This document shows positions 22,321 through 32,428 of a DNA stretch of 32,428 nucleotides, piece by piece (positions within the stretch are counted from its first letter, which is position 1; each line of letters begins with the position of its first letter). Made by a program: the position numbers and the translations under genes. The notes below the pieces were generated by a model. It was not told the DNA's origin. It worked only from the letters and a program-made list of their open reading frames with translations, and searched no databases. Source of the stretch: Clostridia bacterium (GTDB lineage Bacteria > Bacillota > Clostridia > Oscillospirales > RGIG8002); the NCBI GenBank assembly GCA_017453725.1, contig JAFTEJ010000095.1:1-32428 (forward strand). Reading direction: 5' to 3'.

Positions 22321-25300
22321 CTAAACAAGCCGCTCCCTGACCAGCCCGACGGCGCAGCGGAGCGCCGAAAGCGCGTCCGCGACGGTTATCCTGCCGTCGC
22401 CGTCAAAGTCGCCCGCGAACGCCTGCGCTTCCGAAGGCGCAAGCAGTCCCGCCGAGGCCCGGAGCGCGAGCAGAGCGTCGCTGACCGTCACTTCGCCGTC
22501 GCCGTCAAGCTCGCCGAGCTTCACAGGAGCTTCGCCGTACCAGTAGACCTCCAGCTCGGCTATCTGCATACGCTTTCTGTTCTGGTTATAGGGGTTGCCC
22601 CTGATTTTCGTCCCCTCGAGCTTCACGTACTGAGTCTCGACGCCGTCGAAACCGATAACGGCGAAGTCGGTCGGGCGCTCGAAGCCGACCGCCGTCAGCA
22701 CGGCGTCCCAGTTCTCGCCGTCGTCGCTGACGCTGACGGTGAAGTCCTCCGGCACGCCGAAGCCGGCGTCGTCGCCGTTTATGCGAGGATATACAACGAG
22801 CTGGTTTATCGCTTTGCGCTCGCCGAGGTTGATATAGACCCATTCGCTCCTGCCGCCGCTGAGGTTCTTCGACGACCAGCCCTCGTTTTCGCCGACGCGC
22901 GTTTCGCGCACGCCGTCGTTGACGAAGCGCTGGCGTAGCGCGGGATCGGTGCCGTAGGCGGTCGAAACGGCCGTGCGGCAGCCGAGCGCGTAGTTTTCGC
23001 TGACAGGCAGCGAGGTCGGCGCGAAGCGCGCGAAGAGCTCCCTGTCCGCGTCCGCGGTCAGCGTTATAACGCTTTCGCGCGAGCCGACGGAGCCGTCGAA
23101 GCCCGCGAAGCAGTATCCGCGCGCGGGTATCGCCTTCACTATTACCGGCGCGCCGGCGGCGAAGGTCTCCTCATAGGGCAGATCGACGGGGACGCCGTTT
23201 ACCTCCACCCTGCCGTTTTCCGTTTCGCCGACGCGCAGCGTGAAGCTTTCGCCGGACGGCTTCTCCGCCGCGAAGGACTCGAAGCGCCAATCGCCCGCCC
23301 CGACGTTGAAATAGATATAGCCGAAGTCGCTGTAAGCGTACCCGACGCCGGACACGTCTGCGTTCACCGCGCCGCCGTTCCAGACGGGCGCGTCGCCGCA
23401 GAGAATTGCGGTATCTCCCTCCGCCCGCGGCACGCCGACAAGCGCCTCGCTGCCATCCGGCACGTTGAAGCGCGCCGTAAAGCGCCCGTCCTTCTTCTCC
23501 GCTTCGACCTCGATAAGCCCCTTGACGGAGGGGATGCCGGCGCTGACCTTCGTTATCTGCTCTCCGAGCTGAGGCTTGACGAGGAAGCGCTCGTAGCCCG
23601 CCTCCAGCGGACGGACGCCCGCGGCGTAGCCGGAAAGCGAAACGAGTCCGCCGCCCGCCCAGCCGTGGTTCGCGCTGCCGTCCTTGTTCCAGCGTTCCGA
23701 AAGCGTCGGGTAGTCGTTCATAACGTCGTTGTAGTAGCTCTCCTTCATCCGCTGCTCGGCGGCCTCGGGGTAGCCCATTATGTAAAGCGCCTCGATGCAG
23801 TATTTGACCATATACGGACTCGCGAACCTGTTATTCACGAGTATATCGCGCAGCGCCGGGAACTTATCCGGCGAAGCGAGGCCCGCGAAGACCGCGAGCG
23901 CCTGCGCTCTGTCGTCGGCGGGGCCCGTGTAGGTCGAGGCACGGTACTCGCCGCCGTTCCAGAAGAGGCGGTCGAATTTCGAAGCCATCGCGTCGCGCAC
24001 GGAGGAGTAGTACTCCGCCGTCTCCGCGTCGCCGAGCGCGGAGGCGAAGTCGATGACGGTCTTCACCCCGATATACGCCCATATGTTAAGGCACAGGTCC
24101 TTGTCGATGTTGTCTCCCCAGTCCACCCAGCTCAGATGCTGCGTATTCGTGCCGTTCCGACGCTCGAACGGAACGGTGAAGGAGGTCCTGTCGAGCCTGA
24201 AAAGCTCTATATACTTAAGCAGCGCGGGGTAAGCCTTCTCAAGCGTCAGGCGGTCGCCCGAATAGAGATAGTACTGAAACCACGACATGACTCCCGCGAG
24301 CGACTGCCCCGGCAGCTCCGCCCACTCGTTATAGCGGAAGGTGGCGGGCGCGGTCGAAGATATGACGCCGTCCTCGTTCTGCCAGTTTACGCGGACGGAA
24401 ATATCCTTGCGCAGCGCGTCGAAGACGCTTTCGTCGAGCGTGTAGTACGCGATCTGCGCCTCGTTTACCATATCGCCGAGCCACGGCGCGCGTTCGGAGT
24501 CCGGGCAGTCCATAAACGTATCGCGGATGTTGACGTAGACGGTGTCGGCGGCCTTGCGCCAGAGCGTATCGTAGAAATCGTCGTCGCAGTCGAAGTAGCC
24601 GACCTCCTCGGCGTTGTAGCCGGAGCGGCGGTAGCCGAGCTCGACGACCTCGACGCCCTCGGGTACAGTGAAGTCCGCGTACCACCAGTTTATCCATGCG
24701 GGCGACTCGTATTCCTGCTCGACGGCTTCGCCGTCCGCGCCGCCCTTCGTCGTGTAGGTCACAGAGTATCTGCCGGCGTTAGGCACCTGTATCTTTATCG
24801 TCTTGCCCGCCGGCGCGACGACCTTCAGGTACGCGCCGAAGTGGATGTTCGTCGGGAACAGCACGCGGTAGCCGCCGGATATCGGCTGCACGAAATCGGT
24901 ATCGTCGGGCGTGTAGGTCACGCGGTCCCACACCTTCCATTCGGGGATCGGCCGCCGCCAGAGCTCGTTCCACGGCTTATCGCCCGCCGCGCCGAGCTCC
25001 GCGGCGCTTTCCCATCCGGAAGCGTCGAACTCCGGTTTGTAAAAACCGTCGAAGCCCCGGCGCGCGTCGTATACGATATGGAACTCCTGCGCGTGGACGT
25101 TCACGCGCCCCGAAGGCTGATAGCCGAAGTGACGGCTGACGCGCCAGCTCGAATCGGAAACGACGAGCCGGCCGCCCATCCGCGACTCAAAGAGGAACGC
25201 GCCCTGCCCGCTGCCGACGTGGGAGTGCCCCTCGTTGCCGTAATACCACACGAGCGCGACGACGACGTTCCCGCCCTCGCGCAGGTAAGGCGTGATGACA

Positions 25301-25773
25301 ACCTCGTCGTAGTAGGTCGCGACCTCGGTGATCATTTCGTCGAGGTCGGGCTGTTCGTCGCCGCCGGCGGGGTAAATATCCTTCTTCAGAAGCGCCGCGC
25401 CGCGCTTGAGCTGGCCCTCGTATACCGCGAGCTCGCCGTTTATCCAGAGCCAGTATTTCGTATCGGCGGCGATCTTCGCGGTTATCTCGCCCGCGAGGTC
25501 GGAAGCGTCGAGCGTGACTTCCTTGCGGAACGCCATCCAGCGGTTCTGCGCTCCATCGTCGGAGGGCGACCATATCCACTTCGCGGAGAAACCGTATTCG
25601 CTTTTCGCGAAGGCGTCCTCGCCGCGCGCGACGACCGCCGCGGCGTTGTTCGCGGAAAAGTCCGGTTTCGCCTCCCCCGCCTGCGCGAAGGAAGCCGCCG
25701 GGATCGCTCCGAGCAGCAGCGCCAACGCGAGCGCGAAGGCGCATACGCGTTTTATGATAAGGGCGTTTTTCAT
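22321..25773 (-). CDS. Secreted GH78-like alpha-L-rhamnosidase with InlB-like repeat, discoidin and dockerin domains
   Basis: The 1150-residue protein has a signal peptide (about 1-31), an N-terminal beta-sandwich region, an (alpha/alpha)6-barrel part with the GH78-type motif DCPDSERAPWLGD (about 422-434; likely acid Glu427), a later TLSERWN...SANHGWAGG stretch whose Glu (about 693) fits the catalytic base, and a beta-rich end of the catalytic unit. Then come an InlB-type repeat (ARGYCFAGFDG), an F5/8C discoidin-like module (about 935-1085, WVYINLGERKAINQLVVYPR) and a dockerin. In the first dockerin loop GELDGDG replaces the usual Asp. It is expected to cleave terminal rhamnose from plant or microbial glycans outside the cell. 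The start at 25773 follows GGAGGG; own promoter at 25816-25844. Confidence 0.85.
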   Translation of the reverse strand: MKNALIIKRVCAFALALALLLGAIPAASFAQAGEAKPDFSANNAAAVVARGEDAFAKSEYGFSAKWIWSPSDDGAQNRWMAFRKEVTLDASDLAGEITAKIAADTKYWLWINGELAVYEGQLKRGAALLKKDIYPAGGDEQPDLDEMITEVATYYDEVVITPYLREGGNVVVALVWYYGNEGHSHVGSGQGAFLFESRMGGRLVVSDSSWRVSRHFGYQPSGRVNVHAQEFHIVYDARRGFDGFYKPEFDASGWESAAELGAAGDKPWNELWRRPIPEWKVWDRVTYTPDDTDFVQPISGGYRVLFPTNIHFGAYLKVVAPAGKTIKIQVPNAGRYSVTYTTKGGADGEAVEQEYESPAWINWWYADFTVPEGVEVVELGYRRSGYNAEEVGYFDCDDDFYDTLWRKAADTVYVNIRDTFMDCPDSERAPWLGDMVNEAQIAYYTLDESVFDALRKDISVRVNWQNEDGVISSTAPATFRYNEWAELPGQSLAGVMSWFQYYLYSGDRLTLEKAYPALLKYIELFRLDRTSFTVPFERRNGTNTQHLSWVDWGDNIDKDLCLNIWAYIGVKTVIDFASALGDAETAEYYSSVRDAMASKFDRLFWNGGEYRASTYTGPADDRAQALAVFAGLASPDKFPALRDILVNNRFASPYMVKYCIEALYIMGYPEAAEQRMKESYYNDVMNDYPTLSERWNKDGSANHGWAGGGLVSLSGYAAGVRPLEAGYERFLVKPQLGEQITKVSAGIPSVKGLIEVEAEKKDGRFTARFNVPDGSEALVGVPRAEGDTAILCGDAPVWNGGAVNADVSGVGYAYSDFGYIYFNVGAGDWRFESFAAEKPSGESFTLRVGETENGRVEVNGVPVDLPYEETFAAGAPVIVKAIPARGYCFAGFDGSVGSRESVITLTADADRELFARFAPTSLPVSENYALGCRTAVSTAYGTDPALRQRFVNDGVRETRVGENEGWSSKNLSGGRSEWVYINLGERKAINQLVVYPRINGDDAGFGVPEDFTVSVSDDGENWDAVLTAVGFERPTDFAVIGFDGVETQYVKLEGTKIRGNPYNQNRKRMQIAELEVYWYGEAPVKLGELDGDGEVTVSDALLALRASAGLLAPSEAQAFAGDFDGDGRITVADALSALRCAVGLVRERLV

Positions 25774-25815
25774 AGCCGTACCCTCCAAAAGCCTTTTTTA
25801 TATGCCTGCAGATAT

Positions 25816-27655: not shown

Positions 27656-30600
27656 TTATTTCGGCATAAACTCGCCGTAGAGCTCAATCAGATCAATCAC
27701 GTCGCTGAAGCTGAACACTCCCTTTTCCACCGGAATCTTCAGATACGCTCCGTTGAAAGCGACGAACTGATCATAGGTCACATAATCGGCAAATACGCCG
27801 TAGTCATACAGGCCGTAAGTCTCAACGTCAGCTTCAAACTGCGCCGCGTCATATCTGAGCCTGCCGCCCATCGCAATCCAGTTATAGAAATCAGCGGGCG
27901 GAGCGACGGTCAGCAGTCCGGAGGCGAAGACGTTGAAGGCGCCGGCGGAAGTGATCGAGTAAGCCGCGGTGTATTCTTCGGTCACGGTCGCGCTTACCAG
28001 CGTAACGAGCTTGACCAAGCCGTCGGGATCGTACTGCACGAACTTGCGTCCGATATAATCGGCGTAGTTATCAGCGGTGATGTAAACGAACGCGTTCGCA
28101 TCGTAATCGAATACGCCGTGATCGCCGATGATTCTGAGTACCGTTCCGTCGGAGAACTCAAGATTCGCAACGGTATAGAGCTCGGAGCCGTGATTGACGA
28201 GGATCGCGACGCCCTGATTGGAATAGGTACCGTTGAAGAAATCCCACGCAAGGAGCCTGTCGCTGAACGCTACGTCTTCAATAGCCTTCTGAGAACCGTC
28301 AGCCAACGTGATCAGCGTTCCGGCAGCGAAGCAGCTGGAGGAAGAGGAAGCGGTAATCGTGAGGTTCGCTCTGGGCATATCAAACTCGGTATCAAGGCTG
28401 TAGGCCGTTCCGTTCTGATCTTTTATAGTGCAAGATTTCGAGTTCGACTGTTTATACACAACCGAAACTTTGATTTTATCTCCCGGCTTAACTTTGCTGA
28501 TTCTATCCCATTCTTCGCCATTTACGGTCACTGTGACAGTAGCTTCGGTCTCGGACAGATTGATCTTGAATTCTGTTATCTCTGTCCATTCAGTATGGAA
28601 CTGAACGTCTTCATCGGACGAATTGATCAACATACCGTTTTTGCCCGTGAAGGAGCTGTCGGTCGTCGACCATCCGCCAAAGATATAACCGACTTTAGTC
28701 TTGGCAGGGAGAAGGACGGTTTTTCCGGCCGGAGCAGTCAGGATATAATCATTGCCGGAGTTCTCAAGATCTCTCACTTCGAACGTATTGTCGGAATTGA
28801 TAACCAGATACTGCTCCGAAGAAACAGTCGTTTGAATATCCGTACCGCCAGTTCTCGTTGTAACCGTTCCGGAGACGGGCGCGGAGTTTTTCAGAGTAAT
28901 GAATCTGCCGCCCTGAATCTCGAAAACGTTTGCATTTCTTACATAAACCGCATTTGTTGTGGCCGACACGAAGTTGCCGCCGTATATTACGGTTTTTTCA
29001 GTATTTTTGTTATATTTCTCAAACGCATAACCGTTTGTCGCGTAGACCGTTCCGGTCTTGTCAGCGCTCGAGTCTCTGATTGCACGCTGACCGCCGTCGG
29101 TACCGGTATTGGCAGTGCAAATAATCGCTGTGCCCGAGCCGGTGTATGTGTAAGTATGACCGTTTAAATCCAAAACCATTCTTGCTGACAGATTAATGCC
29201 ATACTTATCATAGCTACTGCTTATCGATCCCTCGTCGCTTATCGTCGTATCCTTCATAAGCATTACGTAATCGCCTGTGCCGGCAGCATTAACAGCCGCC
29301 ACAAAAGAATAATACTCATCATAGGGAGTTGACGCTGTGGGAGTTTGTCTGGTATCTCCTAAGTGATAAAGACGAGCGGTAACCGCGGACTGAACCGTGT
29401 AAACCTTTTTCAGCGGATTATCCGGATCCGGGGTCACGAGAATCTCAAAGTTCTCGGGGTTCTCAACGCTCCTCGTTACGGTGGCGCCGGTCCAGGAAAC
29501 GCCGTCTGTGAGAGATACGACCGTGAACGATTCATCCTGCGCGATCTCTTTTGCCGCGGAGGCGTTTTCCACGATATAAACCGTCTCGCCGATATTCGCG
29601 AATCTGATTGCGTCGTCAGCGCCGCCGGCGTATGTGTAAATGACCTTACCGGTCTTCGCAGTGAAGGTTTCGGGTTCGGCAGCGCTGATCTCAAAGCTGT
29701 TCCCGGAAGAACCAACGAGATACTTGCCTTCTTCAACGAATCTGCCTATTGTATCGTTGGAGAAAGTGCCGCCCTTGACGGTCAGAACATCGGAATGAAT
29801 TTCGTCACTCATACGGTCCTTACCATTCTCGTCGTATTTATTCATATGCCCGGTTATGGTGTTGTTTGAAGAATAAGTTCCGCCAAGGATGGTAACACTG
29901 TCCTTATCGGTGCAAACAGTGAACACTTCGTCATATCGGGAGTTAATATACTGGTCCTTATCCACATATCCCGTCTTGTATATGTAGCGTCCGTACAAAT
30001 TGTTATCACAGTAATTTGACGGAGCGCCGCGCGTCAGATCGTCTTCGATATTCGTGAAGTAGAGCGCGGGAATGTTTCCAGACGCGACGGTCAGGTTCTC
30101 GAGAACTACGTTCTTGGCGGGAACCAACGGATGGTACCCGGAAACGGCTTCGTAATTATCGTCTCCGTAATTCAGATGCTTCCACTTAACGTTTGTCGAC
30201 TTATGCTCGCCGACGCGAATCTGGCCGTTGATCGTGCCGTCCTTGACGGTGACGGTATCGCAGTCATAGAGACGCAGGGCGTAAGCGCCGGTACCGGTGC
30301 TTGTCTGCGTAAGCGTGAAGCCGTCCATATCGAGCGTGACGTTGTTCACGCCGGTGACGGTCGCGGGATCGCTGACGTTGCGCAGGAGCGTGACGGTTTT
30401 GCCGTCCGCAGCGTCAAGAGCGTCCTGAAGGTGGAGGTAATAGGTATCGGTAGCGTAGATGACGGCGTCCGCGACCGCGGTGACGGTGCAGGTGCCGATA
30501 ACGCCGTCAGCCGTCGCGGTGATGGTGACAACGCCCGCTTTGTGCGCGGTGACTGCGCCGTTCTGATCGACCGAAATGACGGAGGGATCGGAGGAGGACC

Positions 30601-31987
30601 AGGTGATGGTCTTATAGGTCGCCTCGTCCGGCAGGACCGTTCCGGTCACGTTGGTGCTCGCGCCGACGTCGATGGTGGAATCCGCGACCTCGACGGCCAG
30701 GGACTCGACCGCGATCTTGCTGTCAAACTGAATATCGAAAATACTGTATTTATCCGACTTGATGGTCAGGATGCCGTTCTCGTGATCGTAGTAGTAGCCG
30801 ACAGCGTTTTCATCCGCGCTCGAAAGCATGCTCATTTCGACGGGGTCGGAGCCTTCGTGAGAGTGGGTGACGCTGATTATCTTGAGATCCTTGCCGATGT
30901 TCAGCTCGTTAACAACTATATTGCTGAATTCGGTAACGTCCTTGGTCTCGGAGGTGGTCTCGCCCGTCTGCCCGTCGGTCGTGGTGGTGGTATAGCTGTA
31001 GCTTATATCGTACGATACCGAGTTGATGTGGCTTTCGGATTTTATTTCGCGATTCAATACGCCGGAGGAGTCGGAGGTGTATTCCGTATCATCCGCCAGC
31101 TTCACGGACGTGTCCGCGGGGACGGTGGAAACGGCGAGCGCGTCGCGGATGACGGTTTCGCCCGCGGCGTCAACGTTAAAGTTTTCACCGGCGTTGGTGT
31201 TCATAGCGTACGCGACCGGGGGGAAGCCCGCCTGCGCGTCGTACATATTATCGAAGCTGTCGTATTCGACGGTCGCCTGCGTCGCGATGATGGTCACGTC
31301 GATGATGATCGAGGTGCCCATATATTCGTTGCCGGCTTCTTCCTGCATATGAACGGCGAGCGCGAAATAGTCGGTGCCGTCTTCGCCGTCGGTATAGCCG
31401 ACCGGGTTGATCTTACCGTAAGGCGCGGCCGTGATACGCGCGAAGGACGGGGTGACAGCTTCGCCGGAGGCGGCTCTCATCGCTTCGCCTATCGTGCCGG
31501 CGGGAGTCGTCGACGCGCTGAGGACCGCGTTCCAGTTGGAGAACTGGGTCGCGTTCGTGGCTCCGTCAACAACGGAGAAATCCAGCACGTCGGCGAGATT
31601 CACCGTGTCGTTGACGTTGACGTCTCTGACGTCGAGCAGGATATTATATCTGAGCGCAAGGTTGCCGTTGTTCTTCACGGCAAGATATACGACCTGGGTC
31701 TTGCCGGGCTCCCAGAGCGTTGCGCTGCTGTCCTGAGCGACGGCGGCTTCTCTGAAGATATCGCCTTCGCCGCCGGCGATGGATACGTATTTCGTCTGGT
31801 CGCTCTGCTCGTCATACTTATACATAAGCAGATCGACGTCCAGCGTACCGGACATGATGCGGTTGCCGGAGCTCGTGACGCTGTCGGTGTACCACGCGAA
31901 GGTGGTCCCCGCAAGCATTACGAAGCACATCACGAACGACATAAATGAGCTTATGAACGCCCGTTTCGCTGAGTGTTTCTTTGTCAT
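27656..31987 (-). CDS. Giant SipW-type surface protein with Ig-like domain, beta-helices and C-terminal Hint domain
   Basis: The 1443-residue protein has a SipW-type signal peptide and TasA/camelysin-like N-terminus (1-~240; GTTFAWYTDSVTSSGN, SGTLDVDLL), a linker region, a BIG2-type Ig-like domain (about 425-505, ITWSSSDPSVISVDQNG), beta-helix regions (about 510-800 and 900-1090), an InlB-like repeat (about 1100-1155, GYIFGGWSTT) and a Ser-rich hinge SSSSS leading to a Hint domain from Cys1219. Hint block A is CFAAGTLITLADGSQKAIED; block B is IIGDHGVFDY with His1290; the end is YSITSAGAFNVFASGLLTVAPP at about 1343-1364, where a His-Asn would normally stand. About 80 unassigned residues follow. 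N-S acyl shift and self-cleavage before Cys1219 are therefore possible, but not classical splicing. Expressed from 32143-32171 through a hairpin leader. Confidence 0.88.
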   Translation of the reverse strand: MTKKHSAKRAFISSFMSFVMCFVMLAGTTFAWYTDSVTSSGNRIMSGTLDVDLLMYKYDEQSDQTKYVSIAGGEGDIFREAAVAQDSSATLWEPGKTQVVYLAVKNNGNLALRYNILLDVRDVNVNDTVNLADVLDFSVVDGATNATQFSNWNAVLSASTTPAGTIGEAMRAASGEAVTPSFARITAAPYGKINPVGYTDGEDGTDYFALAVHMQEEAGNEYMGTSIIIDVTIIATQATVEYDSFDNMYDAQAGFPPVAYAMNTNAGENFNVDAAGETVIRDALAVSTVPADTSVKLADDTEYTSDSSGVLNREIKSESHINSVSYDISYSYTTTTTDGQTGETTSETKDVTEFSNIVVNELNIGKDLKIISVTHSHEGSDPVEMSMLSSADENAVGYYYDHENGILTIKSDKYSIFDIQFDSKIAVESLAVEVADSTIDVGASTNVTGTVLPDEATYKTITWSSSDPSVISVDQNGAVTAHKAGVVTITATADGVIGTCTVTAVADAVIYATDTYYLHLQDALDAADGKTVTLLRNVSDPATVTGVNNVTLDMDGFTLTQTSTGTGAYALRLYDCDTVTVKDGTINGQIRVGEHKSTNVKWKHLNYGDDNYEAVSGYHPLVPAKNVVLENLTVASGNIPALYFTNIEDDLTRGAPSNYCDNNLYGRYIYKTGYVDKDQYINSRYDEVFTVCTDKDSVTILGGTYSSNNTITGHMNKYDENGKDRMSDEIHSDVLTVKGGTFSNDTIGRFVEEGKYLVGSSGNSFEISAAEPETFTAKTGKVIYTYAGGADDAIRFANIGETVYIVENASAAKEIAQDESFTVVSLTDGVSWTGATVTRSVENPENFEILVTPDPDNPLKKVYTVQSAVTARLYHLGDTRQTPTASTPYDEYYSFVAAVNAAGTGDYVMLMKDTTISDEGSISSSYDKYGINLSARMVLDLNGHTYTYTGSGTAIICTANTGTDGGQRAIRDSSADKTGTVYATNGYAFEKYNKNTEKTVIYGGNFVSATTNAVYVRNANVFEIQGGRFITLKNSAPVSGTVTTRTGGTDIQTTVSSEQYLVINSDNTFEVRDLENSGNDYILTAPAGKTVLLPAKTKVGYIFGGWSTTDSSFTGKNGMLINSSDEDVQFHTEWTEITEFKINLSETEATVTVTVNGEEWDRISKVKPGDKIKVSVVYKQSNSKSCTIKDQNGTAYSLDTEFDMPRANLTITASSSSSCFAAGTLITLADGSQKAIEDVAFSDRLLAWDFFNGTYSNQGVAILVNHGSELYTVANLEFSDGTVLRIIGDHGVFDYDANAFVYITADNYADYIGRKFVQYDPDGLVKLVTLVSATVTEEYTAAYSITSAGAFNVFASGLLTVAPPADFYNWIAMGGRLRYDAAQFEADVETYGLYDYGVFADYVTYDQFVAFNGAYLKIPVEKGVFSFSDVIDLIELYGEFMPK

Positions 31988-32087
31988 TGTTTTTTCTCTC
32001 CTTTAAGGGTTTACTTTGCAAAGTATTCAAAAAGAGCGCGACCTCTTTTTGACCGGGTAAGATACAACATAATTGGCATTATGTTGT
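31965..32087 (-). repeat. Left arm of a perfect 123-bp inverted repeat (leader and start of the Hint-protein gene)
   Basis: It is identical, as reverse complement, to 32306-32428. It holds the first 23 nt of the coding sequence, the AAAGGAGAG ribosome binding site, hairpin 2 (32027-32052) and hairpin 1 (32064-32087). The identity stops exactly at the outer edge of hairpin 1. Confidence 0.95.
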
Positions 32088-32305: not shown

Positions 32306-32428
32306 ACAACATAATGCCAATTATGTTGTATCTTACCCGGTCAAAAAGAGGTCGCGCTCTTTTTGAATACTTTGCAAAGTAAACCCTTAAAGGAGAGAAA
32401 AAACAATGACAAAGAAACACTCAGCGAA
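32306..32428 (+). repeat. Right arm of the 123-bp inverted repeat (cut by the window edge)
   Basis: It is the perfect reverse complement of 31965-32087. Contains hairpin 1, hairpin 2, ribosome binding site and the start of a second SipW-type gene. It runs to the last base of the window, so the true length is unknown. Confidence 0.95.
32406..32428 (+). CDS. Start of a second SipW-type gene (3' part missing)
   Basis: ATG at 32406 follows AAAGGAGAG at the same spacing as in the Hint-protein gene and encodes MTKKHSA before the window ends; the 23 coding bases are identical to the start of that gene. Only seven codons are visible, so the product is unknown beyond the start of a SipW-type signal peptide. 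It is either a real divergent paralogue with an identical leader, or an assembly artefact at a repeat. No promoter in the present orientation is seen upstream. Confidence 0.55.

What the first reader, a model, noticed from the sequence alone, without database searches (positions are those of the whole stretch)
27656..28333. Hint (hedgehog/intein-like) domain at the C-terminus of a SipW-exported surface protein
From Cys1219 the protein carries intein-type block A (CFAAGT...DGSQKAIED), a block B His (GDHG) and the terminal beta motif, but TVAPP replaces the His-Asn needed for Asn cyclisation. About 80 residues follow, in the position of the adduct-recognition region of hedgehog proteins. The module could cleave its own N-terminal side at the thioester and pass the ~1218-residue beta-helical ectodomain to a nucleophile on the cell surface, a possible sortase-independent anchoring or crosslinking route. 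I know Hint domains from inteins, hedgehogs, bacterial intein-like domains and polymorphic toxins; the pairing with a TasA/SipW-type N-terminus is one I do not recognise.
Basis: partly seen in the sequence, partly recalled or inferred. Interest (0 to 1): 0.8.

Follow-up and report, generated by a model that had tools for sequence, protein, structure and literature searches.

The report
Self-cleaving Hint cap on bacterial surface proteins
A gut bacterium's long secreted surface protein ends in a hedgehog/intein-type self-cleaving module with its own conserved helical tail, and the same module is found on the ends of pili, S-layer-type and fibre-type proteins of many gut Clostridia, so it may let such proteins cut or chemically join themselves at their outer ends.

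Summary
Residues 1219-1364 of the 1443-aa ORF (27656-31987, minus) are a Hint domain: the family profile matches the Tetrahymena BIL2 Hint at 1.3e-12, and an AlphaFold2 model (pLDDT 93.5) superposes on BIL2 (Z 18.9) and hedgehog (Z 17.9). Cys1219 and His1290 are present in all 43 relatives with a complete Hint. The His-Asn needed for C-side chemistry is absent, so only an N-side acyl shift is possible. The ~79 residues after it form a conserved four-helix tail without known relatives, found only with this Hint in 394 genomes of the order. The module sits at the C-terminus of many exported proteins: SipW/camelysin type (at least three), type IV pilins, SLH, dockerin and InlB-repeat proteins, and virion-module proteins of gut phages. 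So the SipW pairing is real but one case of a general cap. It is neither a hedgehog Hog domain (Thr of TxxH and the Asp missing) nor BIL A/B nor a polymorphic toxin. Most likely it self-cleaves through a thioester at Ser1218-Cys1219. Transfer to an outside nucleophile is plausible but unproven, and cell-wall anchoring is the weaker version, since several hosts already carry another anchor.

The parts
27656..31987 (-). 1443-aa ORF: exported surface protein with C-terminal Hint-tail module
31841..31918 (-). SipW-dependent-type signal region (residues 24-49)
   Evidence: TIGR04088, 19.7 bits over cut-off 19; 12 further SipW-type N-terminal matches in the genome; SipW-like peptidases on contig C60
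30500..30709 (-). Big_2 Ig-like domain (residues 427-496)
   Evidence: Pfam E 9e-11
28334..28348 (-). Ser-rich linker (residues 1214-1218); Ser1218 is the predicted scissile -1 residue
   Evidence: -1 is S/G/N/T in 26/26 relatives against 36% background, 14/17 in a second set
28331..28333 (-). Cys1219, predicted nucleophile of the N-S acyl shift
   Evidence: invariant 26/26 and 17/17
27896..28333 (-). Hint domain (residues 1219-1364), without C-terminal His-Asn
28118..28120 (-). His1290, block B histidine
   Evidence: invariant 26/26 and 17/17
27659..27895 (-). four-helix tail (residues 1365-1443), inherited together with the Hint
   Evidence: no Pfam or PDB relative

Best explanation
The C-terminal 225 residues are a self-processing Hint domain plus a family-specific helical tail, carried as an exchangeable end-cap by exported surface proteins. 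After export, Cys1219, helped by His1290, attacks the Ser1218-Cys1219 peptide bond and turns it into a thioester (N-S acyl shift). Since there is no C-terminal Asn and no downstream extein, splicing is impossible and the tail stays with the Hint. The thioester is then resolved, releasing the 225-residue module and leaving the ectodomain with a new C-terminus. I favour resolution by an outside nucleophile positioned by the tail (as cholesterol is in hedgehog or lysine in Tetrahymena BIL2), so that the distal end of the N-terminally assembled protein becomes covalently attached to something; plain hydrolysis is almost as likely. Shown: Hint fold, invariant Cys/His, purifying selection, loss of the C-side residues, obligate tail. 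Inferred: cleavage, thioester, transfer.
For: Hint fold by sequence profile and model. Cys1 and block B His are invariant in 43 modules of which the first 26 already diverge widely. The -1 residue is restricted to small residues, S/G/N/T 26/26 against 73/50/58/62% at -2 to -5 and 36% background, 14/17 in the second set. dN/dS is 0.07-0.14 in the module. His-Asn is absent at the end of the Hint in every member. The tail occurs only with this Hint: 16 of 17 hits of the tail-only profile in 394 genomes, the 17th a chance match to an unrelated enzyme. The module moved between host types: SipW, pilin, SLH, dockerin and Sec hosts are mixed in the tree. Precedents: the hedgehog Hog domain uses only the N-S acyl shift (PMC7664689); BIL2, the best match here, forms an isopeptide to lysine without ATP (PMC8616854).
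Against: No cleavage has been seen. The Thr of the TxxH block B motif is replaced by Ile/Val in most of the family, and the Asp that serves hedgehog transfer aligns with Asn in the window and is not conserved, so transfer would have to work differently. No Lys or other nucleophile in the tail is invariant. The -1 rule has three exceptions (V, L, P) in the second set. One host (L125, TIR-TPR-LRR) has no evident export signal.
Confidence: 0.6

Rival explanations
1. Plain hydrolytic self-cleavage: the module is a removable cap or export/folding helper that cuts itself off, leaving a free carboxylate; no adduct is made.
For: N-side residues kept, C-side lost; hydrolysis is the default fate of a Hint thioester when no acceptor is present (general knowledge of the family); the Asp linked to hedgehog transfer is not conserved.
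Against: An obligate, conserved 79-residue tail is more than N-side cleavage alone needs.
Confidence: 0.35
2. Catalytically silent structural cap: a Hint fold kept for stability or binding, never cleaved.
For: Thr of block B lost; one remnant lacks block A altogether (L127); in L063 the module is internal, with about 260 residues after it.
Against: Invariance of the Cys1/His pair in 43 divergent modules and of small -1 residues in most is not needed for a mere fold.
Confidence: 0.18
3. Polymorphic-toxin arrangement (PT-HINT): the tail is a toxin released by the Hint.
For: Hint close to the C-terminus of a long secreted protein.
Against: The tail is the same family everywhere instead of being swapped; the Hint cannot cut on its C side because His-Asn is absent; no recurrent immunity-like neighbour; the window's downstream genes are L27 and Prp on the other strand.
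Confidence: 0.03
4. Remnant or active mobile intein.
For: Fold.
Against: Lies at the end of the protein, no C-extein, no endonuclease, differing hosts.
Confidence: 0.01

Closest known systems
Hedgehog Hog domain (Hint + sterol-recognition region)
   Same: C-terminal position on a secreted protein; Hint of ~146 residues followed by a shorter helical region; N-side chemistry only; evolves with new N-termini (PMC2362128)
   Different: no Thr in block B, no conserved Asp base, no SCYA, tail without sequence or fold match; bacterial hosts
Tetrahymena BUBL1 BIL2 (6y75, 6tmm)
   Same: closest solved Hint by profile and fold; thioester chemistry; BIL2 conjugates its N-extein to lysines (PMC8616854)
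   Different: BIL2 lies between two ubiquitin-like domains and keeps the C-terminal Asn; no helical tail
Bacterial intein-like (BIL) domains A/B, e.g. C. thermocellum 2lwy; BIL in cellulosomal ScaO (PMC4582956)
   Same: bacterial, found in modular cellulosome-associated proteins of Clostridia, mainly cleave
   Different: BILs cleave on both sides; here His-Asn is gone and a conserved tail follows
Divergent bacterial C-terminal Hint group of Burglin 2008 / Dassa & Pietrokovski (PMC2362128)
   Same: Hint-like domain at the C-terminus of secreted bacterial proteins, outside Hog/BIL/intein
   Different: that group shares an N-terminal region with two conserved Cys; its alignments were not available to me, so identity with the present family could not be tested
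Internal-thioester adhesins (SfbI, PMC4450167)
   Same: idea of a reactive thioester at the far end of a Gram-positive surface protein
   Different: unrelated fold; side-chain thioester, no backbone cleavage

Membership tests
Hint fold superfamily | Hint fold with N-terminal Cys/Ser and block B His | tested here: met
Hedgehog Hog domain | block B TxxH with Thr | tested here: not met
   I-x-x-H in the window (IGDH), mostly I/V-x-x-H in the family
Hedgehog Hog domain | Asp base (fly D303) | tested here: not met
   aligns with Asn1265 in the window by profile alignment, variable in clade A; in clade B an Asp lies one column away, so ambiguous there
Hedgehog Hog domain | SCYA plus sterol-recognition region | tested here: inconclusive
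   no SCYA; the tail has no sequence match in Pfam or PDB and no fold match, but a missing match is not proof of absence
Bacterial intein-like domain type A/B | C-terminal His-Asn for C-side cleavage | tested here: not met
   absent at the Hint end in 26/26
Intein | C-terminal Asn and +1 nucleophile, interrupts a conserved host protein | tested here: not met
Polymorphic toxin PT-HINT | variable toxin after the Hint and a neighbouring immunity gene | tested here: not met
   one conserved tail; no recurrent downstream partner
Vint | VWA plus Vwaint upstream of the Hint | tested here: not met
   no VWA in the window or in the 15 relatives scanned
SipW-dependent/TasA-type exported proteins | SipW-cognate signal region | tested here: met
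   TIGR04088 over cut-off; also L121, and L120 by camelysin PF12389

The most novel reading that the evidence does not exclude
The module is an ATP- and sortase-independent acyl-transfer device at the distal end of pili, TasA-type fibres, S-layer-type and cellulosome-associated proteins of gut Clostridia: self-cleavage passes the C-terminal carboxyl of the surface protein to a specific nucleophile on a neighbouring protein, glycan or foreign surface selected by the helical tail, giving covalent cross-linking or covalent adhesion.
Probability: 0.25. Interest if true: 0.85.

Novelty: new variant of a known kind. Interest (0 to 1): 0.6.

Why it matters
If the module cleaves, it is a new Hint class with its own tail, present in 3.6-4.6% of the sampled genomes of its class and order and in gut phages. 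If it also transfers, it would be a bacterial counterpart of hedgehog lipidation: a third route, besides sortases and isopeptide or thioester domains, by which Gram-positive surface fibres become covalently joined. Two questions become testable with a single expressed fragment: whether Hint can act on the outside of a bacterial cell, and what the acceptor is.

Tried and rejected
Tail as a known domain: no Pfam, no PDB sequence match of note, no fold match of the tail predicted alone (a missing match does not show a new fold). Tail without Hint: one weak hit (G391) proved to be an unrelated enzyme. Toxin-immunity pairing: no recurrent neighbour. Need for an anchor in a sortase-less organism: rejected, two sortase hits on contig C22. 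Plasmid or isolate-phage carriage: none on plasmids, one Hint-only match in isolate phages. Literature: no paper in the held library joins SipW with intein, nor Hint domain with Firmicutes adhesins.

Full report
What is there. The window is a complete contig (C56) of a 1.64-Mb, 75% complete metagenome-assembled genome.

Is it a Hint domain? Yes. Alone, the sequence scores below Pfam's cut-offs, but its relatives match Hint, Hom_end_hint, Intein_splicing and Vint models. The family profile finds the Hint of the Tetrahymena BUBL1 locus (6y75, 6tmm) at about 1e-12 across the whole domain. The model of Hint plus tail is confident (pLDDT 93.5, pTM 0.89). It superposes on BIL2, inteins, hedgehog 1at0 (139 residues, rmsd 1.9, Z 17.9) and the C. 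thermocellum BIL; the matched range ends at model residue ~151, that is protein residue ~1364.

Catalytic residues. In 26 distinct modules Cys1 and the block B His are invariant. In 17 further modules found later in the class sample and in phages, both are again present without exception. The residue before Cys is S, G, N or T in 26/26, compared with 73, 50, 58 and 62% at -2 to -5 and 36% in the rest of the proteins; in the second set it is 14/17, with V, L and P as exceptions. The module is under purifying selection (dN/dS 0.07-0.14 in three pairs). The C-terminal His-Asn is absent in all. The block B Thr is replaced, mostly by Ile or Val, and the Asp of the hedgehog active site has no conserved counterpart (the recalled fly sequence used for this comparison was checked against 1at0, 145/145). 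So an N-S acyl shift is chemically possible, splicing is not, and hedgehog-type transfer cannot simply be assumed.

The tail. Residues 1365-1443 form four helices. A profile of the tail alone hits 17 of 394 genomes of the order. Sixteen belong to Hint-bearing genes (or, in G075 and G166, to their remnants), and the seventeenth is a chance match to an unrelated enzyme. The tail has no Pfam, PDB-sequence or fold match. Among predicted viral structures the best match, to a Gaeavirus Hint protein, covers Hint and tail together (228 columns, TM 0.76), so the pair may be older and wider than the gut Clostridia.

Distribution and hosts. The module occurs in 18 of 394 genomes sampled in the order (two of them weak partial Hint hits), 14 of 391 in the class, and 1 of 398 across the phylum, the window's own; also in MAGs named Clostridia, Ruminococcaceae, Oscillospiraceae and Bacilli. 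It almost always ends the protein (219-231 residues after Cys in 24 of 26). Hosts differ: SipW/camelysin type (window, L121, L120; L121 beside another SipW-cognate gene and one with a partial BsaA-like match), type IV pilin (L007, L115), SLH (L114), dockerin (L008), InlB repeats (L118, L123, L007), Big_2 (window, L009). In the tree these host types are intermixed within two main clades, so the module has moved between hosts. In the same genome, a dozen other SipW-type N-termini were found, and those whose C-termini could be read carry no Hint.

Phages. In metagenomic phages (L060-L062, L150-L152) the same Hint-tail ends a 766-823-aa protein. In the two loci read in full it is encoded directly after the portal-like gene and before a very long protein that in L060 carries ART-PolyVal domains, that is, in the virion module.

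Mechanism. I infer self-cleavage at Ser1218-Cys1219 through a thioester. Most hosts with a recognised N-terminal module share one trait: they are assembled or held at their N-terminal end (pilus, S-layer, cellulosome, TasA-type fibre), so the module marks the distal end. That argues against wall anchoring as the general purpose and fits either removal of an end-cap or attachment of the distal end to an acceptor. BIL2 (isopeptide to lysine, PMC8616854) and hedgehog (sterol ester, PMC7906309) show that both kinds of transfer are within reach of the fold. I put cleavage at about 0.75, and transfer at about a third overall.

Relation to the known. BIL domains in clostridial cellulosome proteins (PMC4582956) and a divergent bacterial group of C-terminal Hint proteins (PMC2362128) are on record, so a Hint on a secreted bacterial protein is not new. 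New here, as far as my tools reach: the obligate helical tail, the loss of all C-side chemistry in a bacterial family, and its use as an exchangeable end-cap of SipW, pilin, SLH and dockerin proteins and of phage virion-module proteins.

Noticed in passing
31965-32087 and 32306-32428: Exact 123-bp inverted repeat holding the ribosome-binding site, start codon and first codons of the Hint gene, with 218 bp between the arms; the contig ends exactly at the outer arm's end. Either an invertible promoter between two divergent SipW-type paralogues or an assembly-graph hairpin.
   Followed up: partly
L060:4228-6696 and L151:3922-6225: Gut phages encode a Hint-tail protein between the portal and a very long protein (ART-PolyVal in L060); a possible self-cleaving virion or ejected protein.
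   Followed up: partly
L125 (genome G197, contig C7), gene on the minus strand: Hint-tail at the end of a TIR-TPR-BspA-LRR protein without an evident export signal.
   Followed up: partly
viral structure library, A0A3G5A239 (Gaeavirus): Giant-virus Hint protein matches Hint plus tail over 228 columns, suggesting the pair also exists outside bacteria.
   Followed up: no
L064-L071: Phage proteins, some with collagen-like or repeat regions, ending in a related Hint but with other tails.
   Followed up: no
22321-25788: Alpha-L-rhamnosidase with F5/8 C and a weak C-terminal dockerin match, suggesting a cellulosome-like system.
   Followed up: no
L128 (G075) and L127 (G166): Broken copies: a SipW-type gene with an internal deletion leading into the tail, and a frameshifted gene lacking block A.
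   Followed up: yes
L170 and L171: Pilin-like hosts with long runs of Ser shortly before Cys1.
   Followed up: no
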